This document shows, piece by piece, positions 49,551 through 56,525 of a stretch of 64,000 bases of DNA. A program made the translations under genes and the position numbers. The DNA comes from Desulfoscipio sp. XC116. GTDB taxonomy: Bacteria > Bacillota > Desulfotomaculia > Desulfotomaculales > Desulfallaceae. Numbering within the stretch: position 1 is the stretch's first letter; each line of letters opens with the position of its first letter. A model generated the notes under the pieces. The model had not been told where the DNA came from. It searched no databases and worked only from the letters and a program-made list of their open reading frames with translations. Where the stretch lies: the NCBI RefSeq assembly GCF_039851975.1, contig NZ_CP156660.1, positions 62,001 through 126,000 on the forward strand, read 5' to 3'.

Positions 49551-50045
49551 ATAACCCCTGGTACGGATAATATTGGCGTTGCTTAAACTAGACGCAAAGT
49601 ATTTGTAATTAAATGGTATCACAAGTGGGCTAACTAAAAAAACCGAATTTATCTTGGAGGGAATAACCTGGCTTTTACTATTTCCTAATCGATTTCAAGA
49701 TTAACTCGGAAATATTTATTAATCCTGCTCTTATTTATCGACTTCTGATGTTGGCTATTAGGGGTAATATCAGCGGAACTGATAACAGGAGCAAAATAGA
49801 TTCAATAAATGTGGTTTTCGCCTATTGCCAGCAACGCTGGCAATAGGCGAAAACCACTAATAATTTAAAAGCCTATGGTTCTTTATGTTCGTTACACGAT
49901 GACAATCCTTGCTGAATTCGTTTGGTTTCCTCCTTTAGTGCTTTAAATTTATTAGTCATTTATTAATATACAATAACCTAACACAGTTTGAACTATAAAT
50001 CCAATGCATGTTTTGCATAGTTATTATGCGTTATGGTAATACAAA
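49551..50045. other. Gene-free interval with a long perfect palindrome
   Basis: No credible gene. The open stretch that ends at the palindrome (about 49710-49840) has no start or ribosome site and may be a further gene remnant. The palindrome at 49811-49857 is listed separately. Confidence 0.5.
49811..49857. repeat. Perfect 22-bp palindrome with 3-base loop
   Basis: 49811-49832 is exactly complementary to 49836-49857 around AAC. No T-run follows on either strand. Unique in the window as far as I can see. Confidence 0.8.
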
Positions 50046-50083
50046 AAGGCAGGCACCAATAATTAAATTGGTCACCTGCCTGA
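50046..50083 (-). terminator. Terminator of selD
   Basis: On the minus strand GGCAGGTGACCAAT pairs with ATTGGTGCCTGCC and is followed by TTTTTG, downstream of the selD stop. Confidence 0.75.
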
Positions 50084-50108
50084 ATTAAATAATATGTTTT
50101 AACTATGA

Positions 50109-51158
50109 TTAGGCGATAACATTAATCAATCCGGGGTCGTTTACTATTTCCCCTATCTCCTCCGCCAGCGTTACTTCCGGGTCTTCGTGCAAAGCGGCCA
50201 GCAGGCGATCCGCATTTTCACGGGACACAACCATCAATAATCCGCCGGAGGTTTGCGCATCGCAAAGAATCAGCCTCATCTCACTTGATAGTACCTGGTC
50301 CCACTGCACCGTGTCACGAAGATAGCGGTAGTTGTTGTGGGTACCCTCGGGCACCGCGCCGGCCCGGACCAATTTTTCAGTTTCCGGCAGCACGGGCACC
50401 GCGGCTGCGTTAACCCGTGCCCCTACCCCGCTGGCGACGGCTATCTCCCGCAAGTGCCCCAGCAGCCCGAACCCCGTCACGTCGGTGCAGGCATTGACCC
50501 CGATCTCCAGCATAATCTCTGAAGCCCGCCGGTTTAGTGTCAGCATAATATCTGTAATTTTTGCTGCTTGGTCTTTATGCACCTTCCTATAGTCTATACC
50601 GGTGGTAATTATCCCAATACCCAGCGGCTTGGTAATAATCAAGCGGTCTCCCGGTTGGGCTCCGTTTTTTCTCACCATCCGTCCCGGATTCACAAAACCG
50701 GTAACCGCCAGGCCGTACTTTGGTGCGCTGTCGGTAATGGAATGCCCGCCGACGATGGTGACACCGGCTTCAGCGGCTTTATCCGCTCCGCCTCTGATGA
50801 TGTCCTCCATAATAGACAGCGGCAGGCTTTGGTTGGGAAACCCGATGACATTTAGGGCGGTCACCGGCCTGGCGCCCATAGCGTATATGTCGCTTAGAGC
50901 GTTAGCCGCGGCAATCATTCCAAACTGGTAAGGGTCGTCGACTACCGGGGTGATATAGTCAATAGTTTGGATCATGGCCAATTCATCATTAAGCTTGTAT
51001 ACCGCAGCGTTATCATCTCTGCCGGCCAAGACGTTGGGGTCTTTCACCGGCGGCAGACAGCGCAGAACCTGTGCCAGGTCCGCAGGACCTATCTTACATG
51101 CTCACCCCGAACCGGGAGAATAAGATGTAAGCTTTACGTTTAACGGCTGCTTCTTCAA
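50109..51158 (-). CDS. selD: Selenophosphate synthase, itself a selenoprotein (in-frame TGA)
   Basis: 349 residues when TGA is read as selenocysteine. It makes selenophosphate, the selenium donor for Sec-tRNA. The frame downstream of GTG 51047 gives the usual body (DPNVLAGRDDNAAVYKL ... DAQTSGGLL). Going upstream, the same frame holds P-P-L-C-R...PGIKCA then TGA at 51104-51102 then GSG: read forward, GSGUACKIGPADLAQVLRCLPP, the SelD active-site motif with U at the usual Cys/Sec position. The frame opens at TTG 51158 after GGGGTGTG, with a stop just before. Ordinary gene calling would truncate it to begin at 51047 without the active site. Sec at residue 19. Confidence 0.92.
51076..51090 (-). 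promoter_or_regulatory. Candidate bacterial SECIS hairpin in selD
   Basis: AGGTCC / GGACCT stem with TGC loop starting 11 bases after the selD TGA on the minus strand, the position expected for a bacterial SECIS bound by SelB. Confidence 0.55.
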
Positions 51159-51176
51159 TATTCACACCCCAAACCT

Positions 51177-51288
51177 TTAGAGGCTGTTTATCTCCGCATA
51201 GCCTGTAAGATCCCGCTGTGTTTTCTTAATATTGATAACACAGTGTGTAAGAAACGGCCTGCGTTCCACATTTTGCAACAGCCTCTTA
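51177..51288. mobile_element. Small MITE-like element with TTA target duplication
   Basis: Ends GAGGCTGTT (51180-51188) and AACAGCCTC (51277-51285) are perfect inverted repeats, flanked on both sides by TTA (51177-51179, 51286-51288). 106 bases, non-coding, with internal hairpin ACACAGTGTGT region. Sits between selD and the UxxC selenoprotein gene. Its outer arm GGCTGTTGCA resembles the ends of the 146-bp elements. Confidence 0.6.
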
Positions 51289-51319
51289 ATACTTTATTCT
51301 ATTTATTGTCTTGTGGTAC

Positions 51320-51577
51320 CTAGTTTAGGATTTCATTAAGGAAGTCGTACATGTTTTCTTTGTCCAAAGCTGTTTCCCTGGGAACTAATTGGCCATTTAC
51401 AAACACATTGGTAGATGATAACAGAGTGTAACCCTTTGCCTCCACTGAATCATTTAGATAAATGTTCAGTTCAATTTTGTCACCGAATTTTTCCTTCATT
51501 TTTTTGGCTATAACTATAGCCATCCGGCAGCTTTTTCAATTTGGATTTCCGCTGTGAAAAACAACCAAATTAACCAT
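51320..51577 (-). CDS. Thioredoxin-fold selenoprotein with UxxC active site (in-frame TGA)
   Basis: 85 residues when TGA is read as selenocysteine. ATG at 51577 follows GGAGG at correct spacing. The N-terminal strand LVVFHSG leads to N-P-N-U-K-S-C, where U is TGA at 51538-51536, then an amphipathic helix (MAIVIAKKMKEKFG) and a strand KIELNIYLND, the beta-CxxC-alpha-beta start of a thioredoxin/glutaredoxin fold with Sec replacing the first Cys. The later STNVFVNGQLV could carry the beta-strand facing the site, though a cis-Pro is not obvious. Just after TGA, GGCTATA / TATAGCC can form a SECIS-like hairpin. Probably a thiol reductase fed by the nearby TrxB. I know no established name. Confidence 0.82.
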
Positions 51578-51646
51578 TAAAAAACCTCCTTTGTTTTGTA
51601 TTGGGATTTTGAGATAAAGAAGTAATAACTGTAAAGTCGTCGCCTT

Positions 51647-51958
51647 TCATATAAGGTCGCCATACCTTTTCTTCCACCATTCCCAGTATGATTTATCGTC
51701 CATAAAAGACTGGTCGTCCGGGGTCCAAACTTCATTTTTATCCATAATGTAACTTTGATCGTTTTTATCCCGGGTCAATATTTCATAGGCTTCAGAGATT
51801 TGCTTAAATTTATCGGTTAAGTTCCGGTCCCCGTCATTGAGGTCGGGATGAAACTTTTTTGCCAGCTTCCGGTACGCGCATTTTATCTCTTCGATACCTG
51901 CTTTGTCGGACACACACAGTATAAGTCTTGCTTTTCTTCTTAATTCCTCCCTTTTCAT
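51647..51958 (-). CDS. Small J-domain protein
   Basis: 103 residues. The J domain (about 8-70) has [18 protein letters not shown] with the HPD motif that stimulates DnaK ATPase. No Gly/Phe region, zinc fingers or substrate domain follow, only an acidic, aromatic tail ([15 protein letters not shown]). So it is a J-domain-only co-chaperone. Minus strand, between trxB and the UxxC gene, 69 bases upstream of the latter. A function in folding or maturation of a partner in this cluster is inference. Confidence 0.8.
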
Positions 51959-51989
51959 TGCTACATCACCACGCTAATTTTAAAAATTT

Positions 51990-52006
51990 CGCTGCGCAGT
52001 AGTTGC
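51990..52006 (+). repeat. 17-base direct repeat flanking trxB, copy 1
   Basis: CGCTGCGCAGTAGTTGC, identical to 53296-53312 on the other side of trxB. Similarity does not extend beyond it. Confidence 0.5.
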
Positions 52007-52217
52007 CTACCGTCCTAAACAATGGTAATAGTTGTCCGTGACATATTTTTGTTCTAAGAACTTCAATCAAAGGTTCCTTAATCTTTTGAAAAACAAGCAT
52101 AAGGAGTCCCCACGAAGTCTGGGGATAACAACGGGACAATAAAGCAAAGTGTTCTGCGTTTGAAATAGGGCCTAATTTAAGCAAAGAAAAAACAGCTTAA
52201 GTTAATTGGTTAAAAAA

Positions 52218-53144
52218 TTATAGGAGGGCTAACCCTTCCAGGTATTTTTCCGCGGTCACTGCGGCGATAGCTCCGTCGGCGACGGCGGTGACCACCTGGC
52301 GAAGCAGTTTTTGACGAACGTCTCCCGCGGCAAATATACCGGGGATTGAAGTTAGCATATTTTCGTCGGTAATAATATAACCCTTTTCATCAAGTCTGAC
52401 CAGTTTTCTAACCAGACCTGAACTGGGCCGGTAACCCACGTAAATAAATGTACCGTCCACATTTAGTTGAGTTTTAGCACCGGTTCGCACATCTTGGATT
52501 AACACAGCTTCTACGGTATTCGTACCGTGGATTTCATCGACGACACTGTGCCAGATGAATTCTATTTTTCCATTCTCAAAAGCCCTTTGCTGTACAACCC
52601 TGGTAGCTCTTAACTCGCCGCGGCGGTGAATGATATAAACCTTTTGCGCAAATCTGGTAAGGAAGAGGGCCTCTTCAACAGCTGCGTCACCTCCTCCGAC
52701 AACGGCAACTTTTTTGTCGCGGAAAAAGGCGCCGTCACAGGTAGCACAATAAGAAACACCACGGCCAGTATATTCCGCTTCACCAAATACGCCCAATAGT
52801 CGAGGCTGAGCTCCAGTAGCTATTATCACTGCGCCAGTTGATATTTCACCGTCATCGGTTTTAACGACAAATTCTTTTTCAACGGGCACAATCTGTTCTG
52901 CATTGGCGGATGCGATTTCAAGACCAAAGCGGCAAGCCTGGCTTTCCATCTGTCTCATTAATTCAGGGCCGCTGATGCCTTCGGCGAAACCAGGATAATT
53001 TTCAATAAAATCTGTGCTAACCACAAGGCCACCTGAGATCCCCTGCTCCAGGAGAACGGTGTTCATGGCAGCCCTGGAAGCATAAATTCCGGCGGAAAGG
53101 CCGGCCGGACCACCACCGATGATAACTAGATCTTTTTTCTCCAT
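52218..53144 (-). CDS. trxB: Thioredoxin reductase
   Basis: 308 residues. FAD motif DLVIIGGGPAGLSAGIYASRA, redox-active CATC in GVSYCATCDGAFF, NADPH-binding VVGGGDAAVEEALFLTRFA and the C-terminal FAD segment GIFAAGDVRQKLLRQVVTAVADGAIAA. It reduces thioredoxin-like proteins with NADPH in the cytosol. ATG 53144 is favoured because AAAGGA sits 12 bases upstream, whereas at ATG 53156 it abuts the codon. No ordinary CxxC thioredoxin is in the window; the nearest thioredoxin-fold gene is the UxxC protein at 51320. Confidence 0.93.
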   Translation of the reverse strand: MEKKDLVIIGGGPAGLSAGIYASRAAMNTVLLEQGISGGLVVSTDFIENYPGFAEGISGPELMRQMESQACRFGLEIASANAEQIVPVEKEFVVKTDDGEISTGAVIIATGAQPRLLGVFGEAEYTGRGVSYCATCDGAFFRDKKVAVVGGGDAAVEEALFLTRFAQKVYIIHRRGELRATRVVQQRAFENGKIEFIWHSVVDEIHGTNTVEAVLIQDVRTGAKTQLNVDGTFIYVGYRPSSGLVRKLVRLDEKGYIITDENMLTSIPGIFAAGDVRQKLLRQVVTAVADGAIAAVTAEKYLEGLALL

Positions 53145-53295
53145 GTCTATATTCATTCCTTTCGCTTCGCTCAAGGCACAAAACATAATTAGATGTATTG
53201 GCTCAAGCTGTTTTTTAAAAGATGCATTTCCTTATTTAGTGAAATGCTTTTATTTTAAGTAGCTTGGCATACTCAGTTTATCCCAGGATGCGGTA

Positions 53296-53312
53296 CGCTG
53301 CGCAGTAGTTGC
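53296..53312 (+). repeat. 17-base direct repeat flanking trxB, copy 2
   Basis: CGCTGCGCAGTAGTTGC, same orientation as 51990-52006. Confidence 0.5.
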
Positions 53313-53417
53313 TCAAAAATCGTTTAACGCTGAATCTCTGTTGTTAGTTGGAAAACCGGTTATTAAAGTTACTGTTTACAGGGTAGCACAGGATATATTA
53401 TAATTCAAATGCAACAT

Positions 53418-53436
53418 ATGCATAAGTAGTATGCAT
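53418..53436. promoter_or_regulatory. Dyad operator between trxB and the LysR gene
   Basis: ATGCATA-N5-TATGCAT, a perfect inverted repeat in the T-N11-A style of LysR sites, 34 bases before the LysR ATG. Probably the site for self-control and possibly for control of divergent trxB. Confidence 0.55.
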
Positions 53437-53469
53437 TTAAGTTATGGATAGCCGGAGGCCGGGTAGACA

Positions 53470-54390
53470 ATGGGCGAATTAAGTTTATACCACCTAAAAA
53501 CCTTTTATACCGTGGCCAGGCATCTTAATTACTCCCGGGCCGGGGAAGAACTGGCCATCAGTCAGCCCGCCGTATCACGACAGGTGGCGGCATTGGAAAA
53601 AAACCTGGGTATGGACTTGTTTGTGCAGCGGGGCCGTAAGGTGGAACTTACTGATGCCGGCAGGAGTTTGTTTGATTACGTTGACCGCATATTTCATTTA
53701 GTAGATCGGGCTGAAAGGACACTGGCGGAATATAAAGACCTGGAACGAGGAAAAGTCTTTTTTGGTGCGGGTATTACCATCGGAGGTCGGTTAATCCCAC
53801 AGATACTGAAAAGCTTTCGGCAAATGCATCCCCGCATTGAGGTATCGTTATTATTAGCCAACAGTTCCACTATAGAGCGCATGGTTGCATGCGGAGACCT
53901 GGACCTGGGATTTACAGCCGGAAGCGTAATGGACTCTGCGCTGCATATGGAATCTGTTTTTCGAGAAGAATTGGTGCCGGTTATTTCTGCGCAGCACCCT
54001 TTGGCTCGACCGGATATTACGCTGGCCGAGCTAAATGGTGAAATGCTGCTCTGGAGGGAAAATGGTTCCGCAGCTAGGGATGTGGTGGAACAATATCTGG
54101 AGGAGGAAGGGCTAACTTTTAAAAACCGGGCGGAGATAAGAGATTCCGGAGCTATCAAACAGCTGGTGTTAGAGCAGTTGGGCGTTGCCTTTCTGCCGCG
54201 CCGCGCGGTAGAGCGGGAACTTAAATCGGGAATTCTACACCGGATTGCATGCAGCGATTCTGCAATTGCTTTAAATTGCCATATTGTTTCGGCTAAAGAT
54301 ATGCATTCATATCCCGCCGTTCTTGCCTTTTTGAATTATGTGCGAAAGTGGGCAAGTGAACATAAAAGCAAACGTTCCAAAGGTAAGTGA
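53470..54390 (+). CDS. LysR-family transcriptional regulator
   Basis: 306 residues. N-terminal winged helix (LYHLKTFYTVARHLNYSRAGEELAISQPAVSRQVAALEKNLGMDLF, about 5-49), linker helix, then a LysR-substrate domain beginning GKVFFGAGITIGGRLIPQIL. Closest in style to CbbR/CysL-type regulators. ATG at 53470 with GGAGG upstream. Divergent from trxB with a dyad operator between them. Effector unknown. Confidence 0.9.
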   Translation: MGELSLYHLKTFYTVARHLNYSRAGEELAISQPAVSRQVAALEKNLGMDLFVQRGRKVELTDAGRSLFDYVDRIFHLVDRAERTLAEYKDLERGKVFFGAGITIGGRLIPQILKSFRQMHPRIEVSLLLANSSTIERMVACGDLDLGFTAGSVMDSALHMESVFREELVPVISAQHPLARPDITLAELNGEMLLWRENGSAARDVVEQYLEEEGLTFKNRAEIRDSGAIKQLVLEQLGVAFLPRRAVERELKSGILHRIACSDSAIALNCHIVSAKDMHSYPAVLAFLNYVRKWASEHKSKRSKGK

Positions 54391-54789: not shown

Positions 54790-55971
54790 TTGAAAATTGA
54801 ATCCCTATCGATAAAAAATTATAAAATATTTCGAGATGTGACCATTAAAGATTTACCTAACATGGCAGTTTTTCTTGGTGCTAATGGTTCAGGTAAATCC
54901 ACTTTATTTGATGTATTTGGCTTTTTACATGATGCTCTAATGGATAACGTTAAAGCAGCTATTACTATGCGCGGTGGCTATAAAGAAGTCGTTTCTAGGG
55001 GTGAAAAGGGACCAATTGATTTCGCCATTAAATTTCGTCCCAAGCCCGGGGATCCTGTAGTTACCTATCAGTTAAAAATAGGTACGGATAACAGGGGAAT
55101 ACCTGTTGTTAAGCGGGAGGTGCTTAGATACCGCCGTGGTCAGAAGGGGCAGCCGTGGCATTTTCTTGATTTTTCTGAAGGTGCCGGAGTAGCCATTGTT
55201 AATGAGATGGAATATGGTCAACCGGATGCCGAACCAATACGCGAGGAGCAGAAATTGGATTCACCCGACATACTGGCTATTAAAGGATTGGGCCAGTTTC
55301 AAAAGTTCCCTCAGATTGCTGCATTTCGCCGTTTAATTGAAGGCTGGCACGTTATGGATTTCCATATTCAAGCTGCGAGATTTAGTCAAGATGCCGGTTA
55401 TAGCGAGCATTTATCGCCCACTGGAGAAAATTTACCACTTGTGGCCAAATTTATGTATGAGCATTACCCAAAACAGTTTCAGGAAATATTGAATAAAATG
55501 TCCCAGAGGGTACCTGGAGTTACAGATGTTCAGGCTACCGAAACTACTGATGGAAGAATAGTATTGCGCTTTCAGGATGGTTCATTTAAGGACCCGTTTA
55601 TTGCCCGGTATGTTTCAGACGGCACAATAAAAATGTTTGCTTATTTATTGTTATTACATGACCCCAATCCGCACCCTTTACTTTGTATAGAAGAGCCGGA
55701 AAGCCAGCTGCATCCAGAACTTTTATATGAACTAGCAGAGGAATTTAGGAGCTATAGTGAAAGGGGCGGTCAGGTATTCATATCTACTCACTCACCTGAT
55801 TTTGTGAACGGCGTAGATATCTCTGAATTGTTTTGGCTAACTAAGCGGCAAGGCTTTAGTATTATTCAAAAAGCTTCTGAAAATAAATTGGTAAAAAGTC
55901 TTATAAAAGAAGGGGACTTACTTGGCTCACTGTGGAAACAAGGCTTTTTTGAGGGAGCCGGGCCACGATGA
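54790..55971 (+). CDS. AAA (RecF/OLD-like) ATPase, first gene of a two-gene module
   Basis: 393 residues. N-terminal strand pair IESLSIKNYKIFRDVTI, Walker A LGANGSGKSTLFDVFGFL (about 29-46), an inserted helical region, signature SDGTIKMFAYLLLL, Walker B LLCIEEPESQLHPELL and H-loop VFISTHSPDFV. This ABC-ATPase-like arrangement is that of AAA_15/AAA_21 proteins. TTG start after AAGGGGG. The stop overlaps the next gene's ATG by four bases, so the pair is coupled. Such pairs with a nuclease-like partner often act in phage defence; that is inference here. Confidence 0.82.
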   Translation: MKIESLSIKNYKIFRDVTIKDLPNMAVFLGANGSGKSTLFDVFGFLHDALMDNVKAAITMRGGYKEVVSRGEKGPIDFAIKFRPKPGDPVVTYQLKIGTDNRGIPVVKREVLRYRRGQKGQPWHFLDFSEGAGVAIVNEMEYGQPDAEPIREEQKLDSPDILAIKGLGQFQKFPQIAAFRRLIEGWHVMDFHIQAARFSQDAGYSEHLSPTGENLPLVAKFMYEHYPKQFQEILNKMSQRVPGVTDVQATETTDGRIVLRFQDGSFKDPFIARYVSDGTIKMFAYLLLLHDPNPHPLLCIEEPESQLHPELLYELAEEFRSYSERGGQVFISTHSPDFVNGVDISELFWLTKRQGFSIIQKASENKLVKSLIKEGDLLGSLWKQGFFEGAGPR

Positions 55972-56525
55972 GTAAAATTGTTTTTATGTTGGAAGAGCCC
56001 TCAATGAAAGAATTGCTGGATAAGTTACTGCCACAACTGCTTCCGCAGGGGGTGGACTTTATGACGGTTCCACATGAGGGAAAGCAGGATTTGGAAAGAT
56101 CTATCCGCCGCAAGCTGCGCGCATGGAATGAGCCTGGAGTGCGCTTTATCATTGTACGTGACCAGGATGGTGGGAATTGTTTTAGAATAAAAGGTGATCT
56201 CCTAAATATTTGTAAACTGGCCGGCAGGCCAGATTCCGTAATTCGCATTGTTTGCAACGAATTGGAATCATGGTTTCTGGGGGATTTAGTTGCGGTTGCT
56301 GCTGCTTATGATAAACCCCGGATTGCAAGGTTGCAGGGAAAAAGAAAATATCGTAATCCTGATAATGTTACCAACGCGGCAGAGGAATTAAAAAAACTGG
56401 TCCCAGAATATCAGAAGCTTCAAGGAGCCAGGAGAATCGCAAACCACATTGATAGAGACAGAAATATATCAAATAGTTTTCGCGTATTTTTAGAAGGGGT
56501 TTTACGGGTAGCTAATAGTAATTAA
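55968..56525 (+). CDS. DUF4276-family Toprim-like partner protein
   Basis: 185 residues. N-terminal VFMLEEPSMKELLDKLLPQLLP supplies the conserved Glu, FIIVRDQDGGNC a DxD, and VCNELESWFLGD another acidic pair, as in Toprim-type nucleases (OLD, DUF4276). ATG inside the ATPase stop (ATGA). Likely the effector or partner of the upstream ATPase. Toxicity or nuclease activity untested and inferred only from fold and pairing. Confidence 0.75.
   Translation: MSKIVFMLEEPSMKELLDKLLPQLLPQGVDFMTVPHEGKQDLERSIRRKLRAWNEPGVRFIIVRDQDGGNCFRIKGDLLNICKLAGRPDSVIRIVCNELESWFLGDLVAVAAAYDKPRIARLQGKRKYRNPDNVTNAAEELKKLVPEYQKLQGARRIANHIDRDRNISNSFRVFLEGVLRVANSN

What the first reader, a model, noticed from the sequence alone, without database searches (positions are those of the whole stretch)
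51320..51577. Unannotated UxxC thioredoxin-fold selenoprotein hidden by in-frame TGA
Seen: ATG 51577 with GGAGG upstream opens a frame that meets TGA at 51538 and then continues without a stop to 51320. The residues round it read NPNUKSC, followed by a helix and strand as in thioredoxin. A hairpin GGCTATA/TATAGCC follows the TGA. Known: Sec often replaces the first Cys of CxxC in redox proteins and selD lies next door. Gene callers will report only a 67-residue fragment starting at 51523 with no active site.
Basis: partly seen in the sequence, partly recalled or inferred. Interest (0 to 1): 0.85.

Follow-up and report, generated by a model that had tools for sequence, protein, structure and literature searches.

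The report
Thioredoxin-like selenoprotein TsoX beside selD

Summary
Reading the TGA at 51538-51536 as selenocysteine gives an 85-residue protein (51577-51320, minus strand) with the motif HSGNPNUKSC. It scores 129.7 bits (cut-off 52) against NCBIfam NF045809, TsoX. A 2026 review lists TsoX as a predicted UxxC selenoprotein, so the family is known. All five members found over the cut-off, window included, carry TGA there and Cys three codons on. The genome has selA, selB, tRNA-Sec and selD. The hairpin after the TGA meets published bSECIS limits in 4 of 5 members, but so do 11% of all window TGAs. The model is a confident thioredoxin fold whose first strand precedes the TGA.

Additions: one distant member is fused to thioredoxin reductase, and trxB lies near tsoX here. 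The selenoprotein gene tsoY, beside tsoX in Desulfotruncus arcticus, is missing here. All five members have Thr or Ser where thioredoxins have the cis-proline. I suggest a TrxB-fed oxidoreductase serving selenium metabolism; that role is inferred.

The parts
51320..51577 (-). tsoX, 85-codon selenoprotein gene (ATG to TAG)
   Evidence: NF045809 129.7 bits vs cut-off 52; coordinates checked
51536..51538 (-). Sec-UGA, codon 14, first position of UxxC
   Evidence: TGA in 5 of 5 members over the cut-off
51505..51522 (-). SECIS-like hairpin: 7 bp stem, AGUU loop, 20 nt between UGA and loop
   Evidence: limits from PMC13188914
51585..51589 (-). Shine-Dalgarno-like GGAGG of tsoX
50109..51158 (-). selD, selenophosphate synthetase, with its own in-frame TGA at 51104-51102; start probably TTG 51158
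   Evidence: TIGR00476 349.9 bits (cut-off 125) on the part 50109-51047; extension read, coordinates; the start codon is inferred
51647..51958 (-). small DnaJ-domain protein
   Evidence: PF00226 E 2e-18
52218..53186 (-). trxB, thioredoxin reductase
   Evidence: TIGR01292 392.1 bits vs cut-off 343.45
53470..54390 (+). LysR-type regulator; best NCBIfam match is the selenium-metabolism LysR NF040786, below its cut-off
   Evidence: 185.3 bits vs cut-off 250
51578..51646 (-). dnaJ-tsoX junction where tsoY is missing; its tsoX-side part matches the sequence after the tsoY stop in Desulfotruncus arcticus
   Evidence: no TsoY match at E <= 1 in the whole genome

Best explanation
The gene encodes TsoX, an 85-residue thioredoxin-fold selenoprotein. 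Shown by sequence and prediction: UGA codon 14 sits where related thioredoxins have the first Cys of CxxC, at the start of helix 1; TsoX genes with the same UGA are in four other genomes; the genome has the Sec machinery. Inferred: SelB inserts Sec with the help of the hairpin after the UGA; Sec14 attacks an oxidised or selenium/metalloid-bearing substrate, Cys17 resolves the bond, and the TrxB encoded in the same locus re-reduces the selenenylsulfide with NADPH (about 0.6 likely). Further inferred: its job lies in selenium handling next to SelD, for example reducing selenium or passing it on for selenophosphate synthesis (about 0.35). Identity as a selenoprotein of the TsoX family is about 0.97 likely; the confidence given is for identity plus a redox role of UxxC.
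For: NF045809 match far over cut-off. TGA and +3 Cys in 5 of 5 members over the cut-off, which came from 113 genomes of the order (4 over the cut-off) and 398 of the phylum (2, the window's own again among them). Cys at the Sec column in 4 of 4 distant Cys-type proteins that I chose to align. selA, selB, tRNA-Sec, selD with its own TGA. More synonymous than non-synonymous change per site after the TGA in all 6 pairs of four members (weakest pair 0.12 vs 0.06). Model pLDDT 96.1, strand 2-8 before Sec14, helix 15-34 after it; most of the top solved matches are thioredoxins. TrxB is in the same gene row in the window and in D. arcticus, and fused in G097: one 412-codon frame matching TsoX at 10-89 and TrxB at 107-405. 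selD lies within about 2.2 kb in 4 of 5 loci. A thioredoxin reduces selenite and appears important for selenoprotein synthesis in E. coli (PMC8538045, abstract only).
Against: No experiment. Before the TGA there are only 13 codons, and pS against pN there rests on one or two synonymous changes a pair. The hairpin is only weakly above chance and G097 misses the energy limit (-7.3 vs -7.5). No TrxB match in the 17 kb and 16 kb held round tsoX in G416 and G469. No selD match in the 19.6 kb held round the fused member G097, which sits with corrinoid and MtaA/CmuA-like genes, so a selenium role may not be general. LysR and selD also sit with tsoY, without tsoX, in G406. Four of the five members are from one order, so neighbour counts are not independent.
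Confidence: 0.9

Rival explanations
1. TsoX is a general or methyltransferase-linked thiol reductase, fed by TrxB, with no special tie to selenium metabolism; selD is beside it because selenium genes cluster.
For: The fused TsoX-TrxB of G097 lies between a corrinoid-type protein and an MtaA/CmuA-like methyltransferase and near two small MerP-like proteins read with TGA as Sec, with no selD match in the 19.6 kb held. All these neighbour names are best matches below the curated cut-offs. Cys relatives below the TsoX cut-off in G461 also lie near an MtaA/CmuA-like gene (123.5 bits, cut-off 235.4).
Against: In 4 of 5 loci selD and the LysR regulator are at hand, and no match to the G097 corrinoid or methyltransferase proteins was found in the three such stretches searched (L029, L030, L031). 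The window was not searched for them.
Confidence: 0.35
2. TsoX binds a metal or metalloid at UxxC rather than acting as a thiol reductase.
For: The residue aligned with the thioredoxin cis-proline is Thr or Ser in 5 of 5 members, Pro in the 4 Cys relatives aligned and in 1nho and 1fo5. A passage of PMC2757866 says the cis-proline may prevent metal binding to CxxC.
Against: TrxB adjacency and fusion point to redox cycling. Loss of cis-proline is only permissive. The assignment rests on sequence alignment; bond geometry in the model was not measured.
Confidence: 0.25
3. The real gene is the 67-residue fragment starting at 51523, and the TGA frame upstream is chance.
For: It is the frame that a mechanical caller lists.
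Against: The HSG.P.UxxC pattern is kept in five genomes; the profile covers residues 2-82; by the model the fragment would lack the first strand and the active site.
Confidence: 0.02
4. A cysteine gene recently broken by a TGA mutation.
For: Distant relatives have Cys there.
Against: The same TGA is in 5 of 5 members over the cut-off, from three families by the tool's labels (f1, f18, f149), with the reading frame kept.
Confidence: 0.01

Closest known systems
TsoX, NCBIfam NF045809 (HSGNPxU motif (seleno)protein)
   Same: Motif, length (residues 2-82 on profile positions 1-81 of 82), UxxC, 129.7 bits vs cut-off 52
   Different: No difference seen in the sequence. The original paper (Haft and Tolstoy 2025, mSystems) is not held, so its neighbourhoods could not be compared.
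MJ0307-type small thioredoxins (TIGR00411; 1fo5, 1nho in the PDB)
   Same: Length about 85, CxxC position, profile match over nearly the whole length
   Different: Sec for the first Cys, Thr for the cis-proline; 18.4 bits vs cut-off 92.75
SaoT (NF040730) and HUIPC (NF047660) selenoproteins
   Same: Thioredoxin-like UxxC proteins
   Different: 17 bits vs 65 and 14 bits vs 105
AhpF (TIGR03140)
   Same: Thioredoxin-like part joined to a TrxB-like reductase, as in the G097 fusion (AhpF anatomy recalled; match)
   Different: The G097 fusion scores 249.1 bits vs cut-off 502.9 and its thioredoxin part is TsoX; in the window the two are separate genes

Membership tests
TsoX (NF045809) | score over curated cut-off | tested here: met
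   129.7 bits, cut-off 52, E 3.5e-38
TsoX (NF045809) | HSGNPxU motif, UxxC | tested here: met
   FHSGNPNUKSC; motif as named
TsoX (NF045809) | gene neighbourhood described by its authors | not testable with these tools
   paper not held
bacterial selenoprotein | complete Sec machinery in the genome | tested here: met
   selA, selB, tRNA-Sec, selD
bacterial selenoprotein | hairpin within the bSECIS limits (loop 3-9 nt, stem 4-16 bp, G in first two loop positions, 16-37 nt, MFE <= -7.5) | tested here: met
   window hairpin meets all (-8.3); 11.3% of window TGAs do too, so weak
bacterial selenoprotein | Sec actually inserted | not testable with these tools
   needs 75Se labelling or mass spectrometry
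classical thioredoxin (PF00085) | thioredoxin fold | tested here: met
   pLDDT 96.1; 2trx_A Z 9.6, rmsd 2.0 over 81 residues
classical thioredoxin (PF00085) | Pfam match | tested here: not met
   no Pfam family at E <= 0.01 for the window protein; of the 9 aligned proteins 1 matches PF00085 and 4 match PF13192
classical thioredoxin (PF00085) | cis-proline before strand 3 | tested here: not met
   Thr56 aligned to it; by sequence alignment only

The most novel reading that the evidence does not exclude
TsoX is a dedicated selenium (or metalloid) carrier: a UxxC thioredoxin fold freed of its cis-proline so that it can hold a selenium or soft-metal atom, charged through TrxB and, in the window's relatives, delivering selenium to the neighbouring SelD, itself a selenoprotein.
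Probability: 0.15. Interest if true: 0.65.

Novelty: new member of a known kind. Interest (0 to 1): 0.35.

Why it matters
The gene is a clean case of a selenoprotein that an ordinary ORF caller misreads, but the family has a name. It matters a little more because a 2026 review calls the form of selenium that SelD uses in cells, and its donor, incompletely elucidated (PMC13188914, passage). A Sec thioredoxin in one gene row with a thioredoxin reductase and selD, and with its cis-proline lost, is a direct candidate to test.

Tried and rejected
Rfam scan of 50000-53500 gave two matches, both below their gathering scores, and no SECIS family. No TsoX relative at E <= 1e-3 among 72,556 plasmid records; phage, viral-contig and E. 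coli collections were not searched. The genome-contig scan, which reaches close relatives only, found one close relative (Desulfotruncus arcticus, L011) and two archaeal thioredoxins with WCGPC. TsoY was sought in the window's own genome and not found. The class-level search went over 113 genomes with the same result as the order-level one, and two searches round G097 went over the same 10 genomes; they add no member. Below-cut-off matches (6 genomes, 2), which carry no stop, were not counted as TsoX. Four Cys-type proteins of G461 (L032) were chosen for the alignment; the other below-cut-off hits were left out of it. Two further small proteins of that row look thioredoxin-like by eye and were left out too. 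The script used a motif too tight to find the known TsoX members and was replaced. The translations of L004, L005, L006, L008, L010, L027 and L028 read the wrong strand and were not used. L048 (G420, around tsoY) was fetched and not analysed. In the alignment of the hairpin one cell has a two-sided change and 113 of 500 shuffles reach that: not evidence by itself. Pfam at E <= 1 gave one match for the window protein, RnlA_toxin at E 0.041, 14.6 bits against a cut-off of 27, taken as chance. In the VIA-align list fold-switched KaiB stands among the thioredoxins (Z 10.9 and 10.4), so the fold comparison shows the fold, not the function. The best Foldseek E-value is 9.6e-05.

Literature searches on TsoX, TsoY, TsoA, HSGNP and the paper's title: the one relevant paper that I recognised was the 2026 review, of which I saw passages. 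A few other listed papers hold the letters 'tsox' or 'tsoy' beside 'selenoprotein' (for example PMC8533274, PMC8763373, PMC10536192); I did not open them. Su et al. 2007 on the cis-proline was seen only as a reference entry. Haft and Tolstoy 2025 was not seen beyond its reference entry. Searches were read as listings, from which PMC8538045 (abstract and outline) and PMC2757866 (passages) were opened.

Full report
Observation. The ORF tool lists only 51320-51523, 67 residues. Three TGAs in the window have a ribosome-site-like start upstream and 40 or more open codons downstream; only this one has Cys three codons away.

Identity. The 85-residue translation matches NCBIfam NF045809, TsoX, with 129.7 bits against a cut-off of 52, over residues 2-82, so on both sides of the TGA. 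The 2026 review PMC13188914 lists the HSGNPxU motif selenoprotein TsoX, NF045809, UxxC, and credits reference 64, Haft and Tolstoy 2025 (passages). That paper is not held. Four other small thioredoxin-like families match at E 0.0017 to 0.065, far below their cut-offs.

Members. Over the cut-off: 4 of 113 genomes of the order and 2 of 398 of the phylum, one of them the window's own again. Together five loci: the window, Desulfotruncus arcticus (L011, taken to be G412), G416 of the same genus, G469 and G097. All five have TGA at the site and Cys three codons on. Of the six other genomes of the genus listed, one (G416) has it. In an alignment with four Cys-type proteins of G461 that I chose, the Sec column is Cys in all four, and the second Cys is kept in three of four. 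After the TGA, synonymous change per site exceeds non-synonymous in all six pairs of four members (window, D. arcticus, G416, G469); the 13 codons before the TGA are too few to tell.

Sec machinery. tRNA-Sec at C1:1688923 (67.1 bits), selA at C1:1704817, selB at C1:1702898. selD lies 161 nt downstream of tsoX if it starts at TTG 51158, and has its own in-frame TGA at 51104-51102 in SPGSGUACK.

SECIS. The review gives limits for the bacterial element. The window hairpin (7 bp, loop AGUU, 20 nt between UGA and loop, -8.3 kcal/mol) meets them, as do D. arcticus, G416 and G469; G097 misses on energy (-7.3). But 211 of 1871 TGAs in the window meet them too, single-sequence z-scores are modest, and covariation is one cell; the share of cells paired, 91.4%, was reached by 27 of 500 shuffles. 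The hairpin agrees with Sec insertion and does not prove it.

Structure. AlphaFold2 on nine sequences, Sec given as Cys, gives pLDDT 96.1: strand 2-8, helix 15-34 starting right after residue 14, then further strands and helices. Most of the top solved matches are thioredoxins (for example 2trx_A Z 9.6, rmsd 2.0 over 81 residues); fold-switched KaiB is also high in the VIA-align list. A profile of the nine sequences matches 1nho and 1fo5 best in the PDB. A fragment starting after the TGA would lack strand 1 and the Sec. The residue aligned with the cis-proline is Thr in four members and Ser in G097, against Pro in the four Cys relatives and in 1nho and 1fo5. PMC2757866 (passage) says the cis-proline likely forms part of the substrate-binding site and may prevent metal binding to CxxC.

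Neighbourhood. Window order: LysR (divergent), trxB, dnaJ-like, tsoX, selD. D. arcticus has the same with tsoY between dnaJ-like and tsoX. tsoY there has a TGA at codon 323 and scores 466.7 bits (cut-off 250) on the part before it. In G416 only the last 37 codons of tsoY remain, no TrxB match lies in the 17 kb held, and a 426-codon frame that looks like a transposase (not tested) lies between tsoX and selD. In the window tsoY is gone: the sequence before tsoX matches what follows the tsoY stop in D. arcticus, and there is no TsoY match in the whole genome. G469 has LysR, selD and tsoX and no TrxB or TsoY match in the 16 kb held. G406 has LysR, tsoY and selD but no TsoX match. The LysR proteins of the window, G416, G469 and G406 have NF040786 (selenium metabolism) as best match, all below its cut-off of 250 (185.3, 194, 182.7, 192 bits). 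TsoY over its cut-off is in 3 of 113 genomes of the order; among these 113 both genes are found together only in G412. So tsoX and tsoY look like separately lost cargo of a LysR-selD locus, and TsoX can be kept without TsoY.

Fusion. In G097 one frame of 412 codons holds TsoX (residues 10-89, 104.1 bits) and thioredoxin reductase (107-405, 365.6 bits). It is a single case. Its neighbours are a corrinoid-type protein, an MtaA/CmuA-like methyltransferase and two small MerP-like proteins with in-frame TGA; these names are best matches, all below the curated cut-offs.

Mechanism. Shown: family, Sec codon, machinery, neighbours; the fold is predicted. Inferred: Sec14-Cys17 redox cycle re-reduced by TrxB; a role in selenium handling beside SelD. 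The genome has a second TrxB over the cut-off (C1:1605940), so the one beside tsoX may be dedicated to it, but this is inference. A thioredoxin was reported to reduce selenite through a selenium-bound intermediate and to be important for selenoprotein synthesis in E. coli (PMC8538045, abstract), which makes the selenium role plausible. Against it stands G097, with no selD match in the 19.6 kb held and with methyltransferase-type genes.

Verdict. New member of a known kind, with a modest, testable addition in neighbours and active site.

Noticed in passing
50109-51158: selD has an in-frame TGA (51104-51102) in SPGSGUACK and a probable TTG start; the mechanical ORF list shortens it to GTG 51047.
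   Followed up: yes
L023 5477-10309 (G097): TsoX-TrxB fusion among a corrinoid-type protein, an MtaA/CmuA-like methyltransferase, two MerP-like proteins with TGA codons (one UxxU) and a membrane-type protein.
   Followed up: partly
L032 4614-8761 (G461): Row of small Cys-type thioredoxin-like proteins (four aligned, two more by eye) with a BioB/PylB-like radical SAM protein and an MtaA/CmuA-like gene, both below cut-offs.
   Followed up: partly
L030 8129-8239 (G416): Remnant of the last 37 codons of tsoY beside an intact tsoX.
   Followed up: yes
54790-56525: A 393-residue ATPase-like frame overlapping a 185-residue frame, a pair that by eye resembles two-gene defence systems; no search was made.
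   Followed up: no
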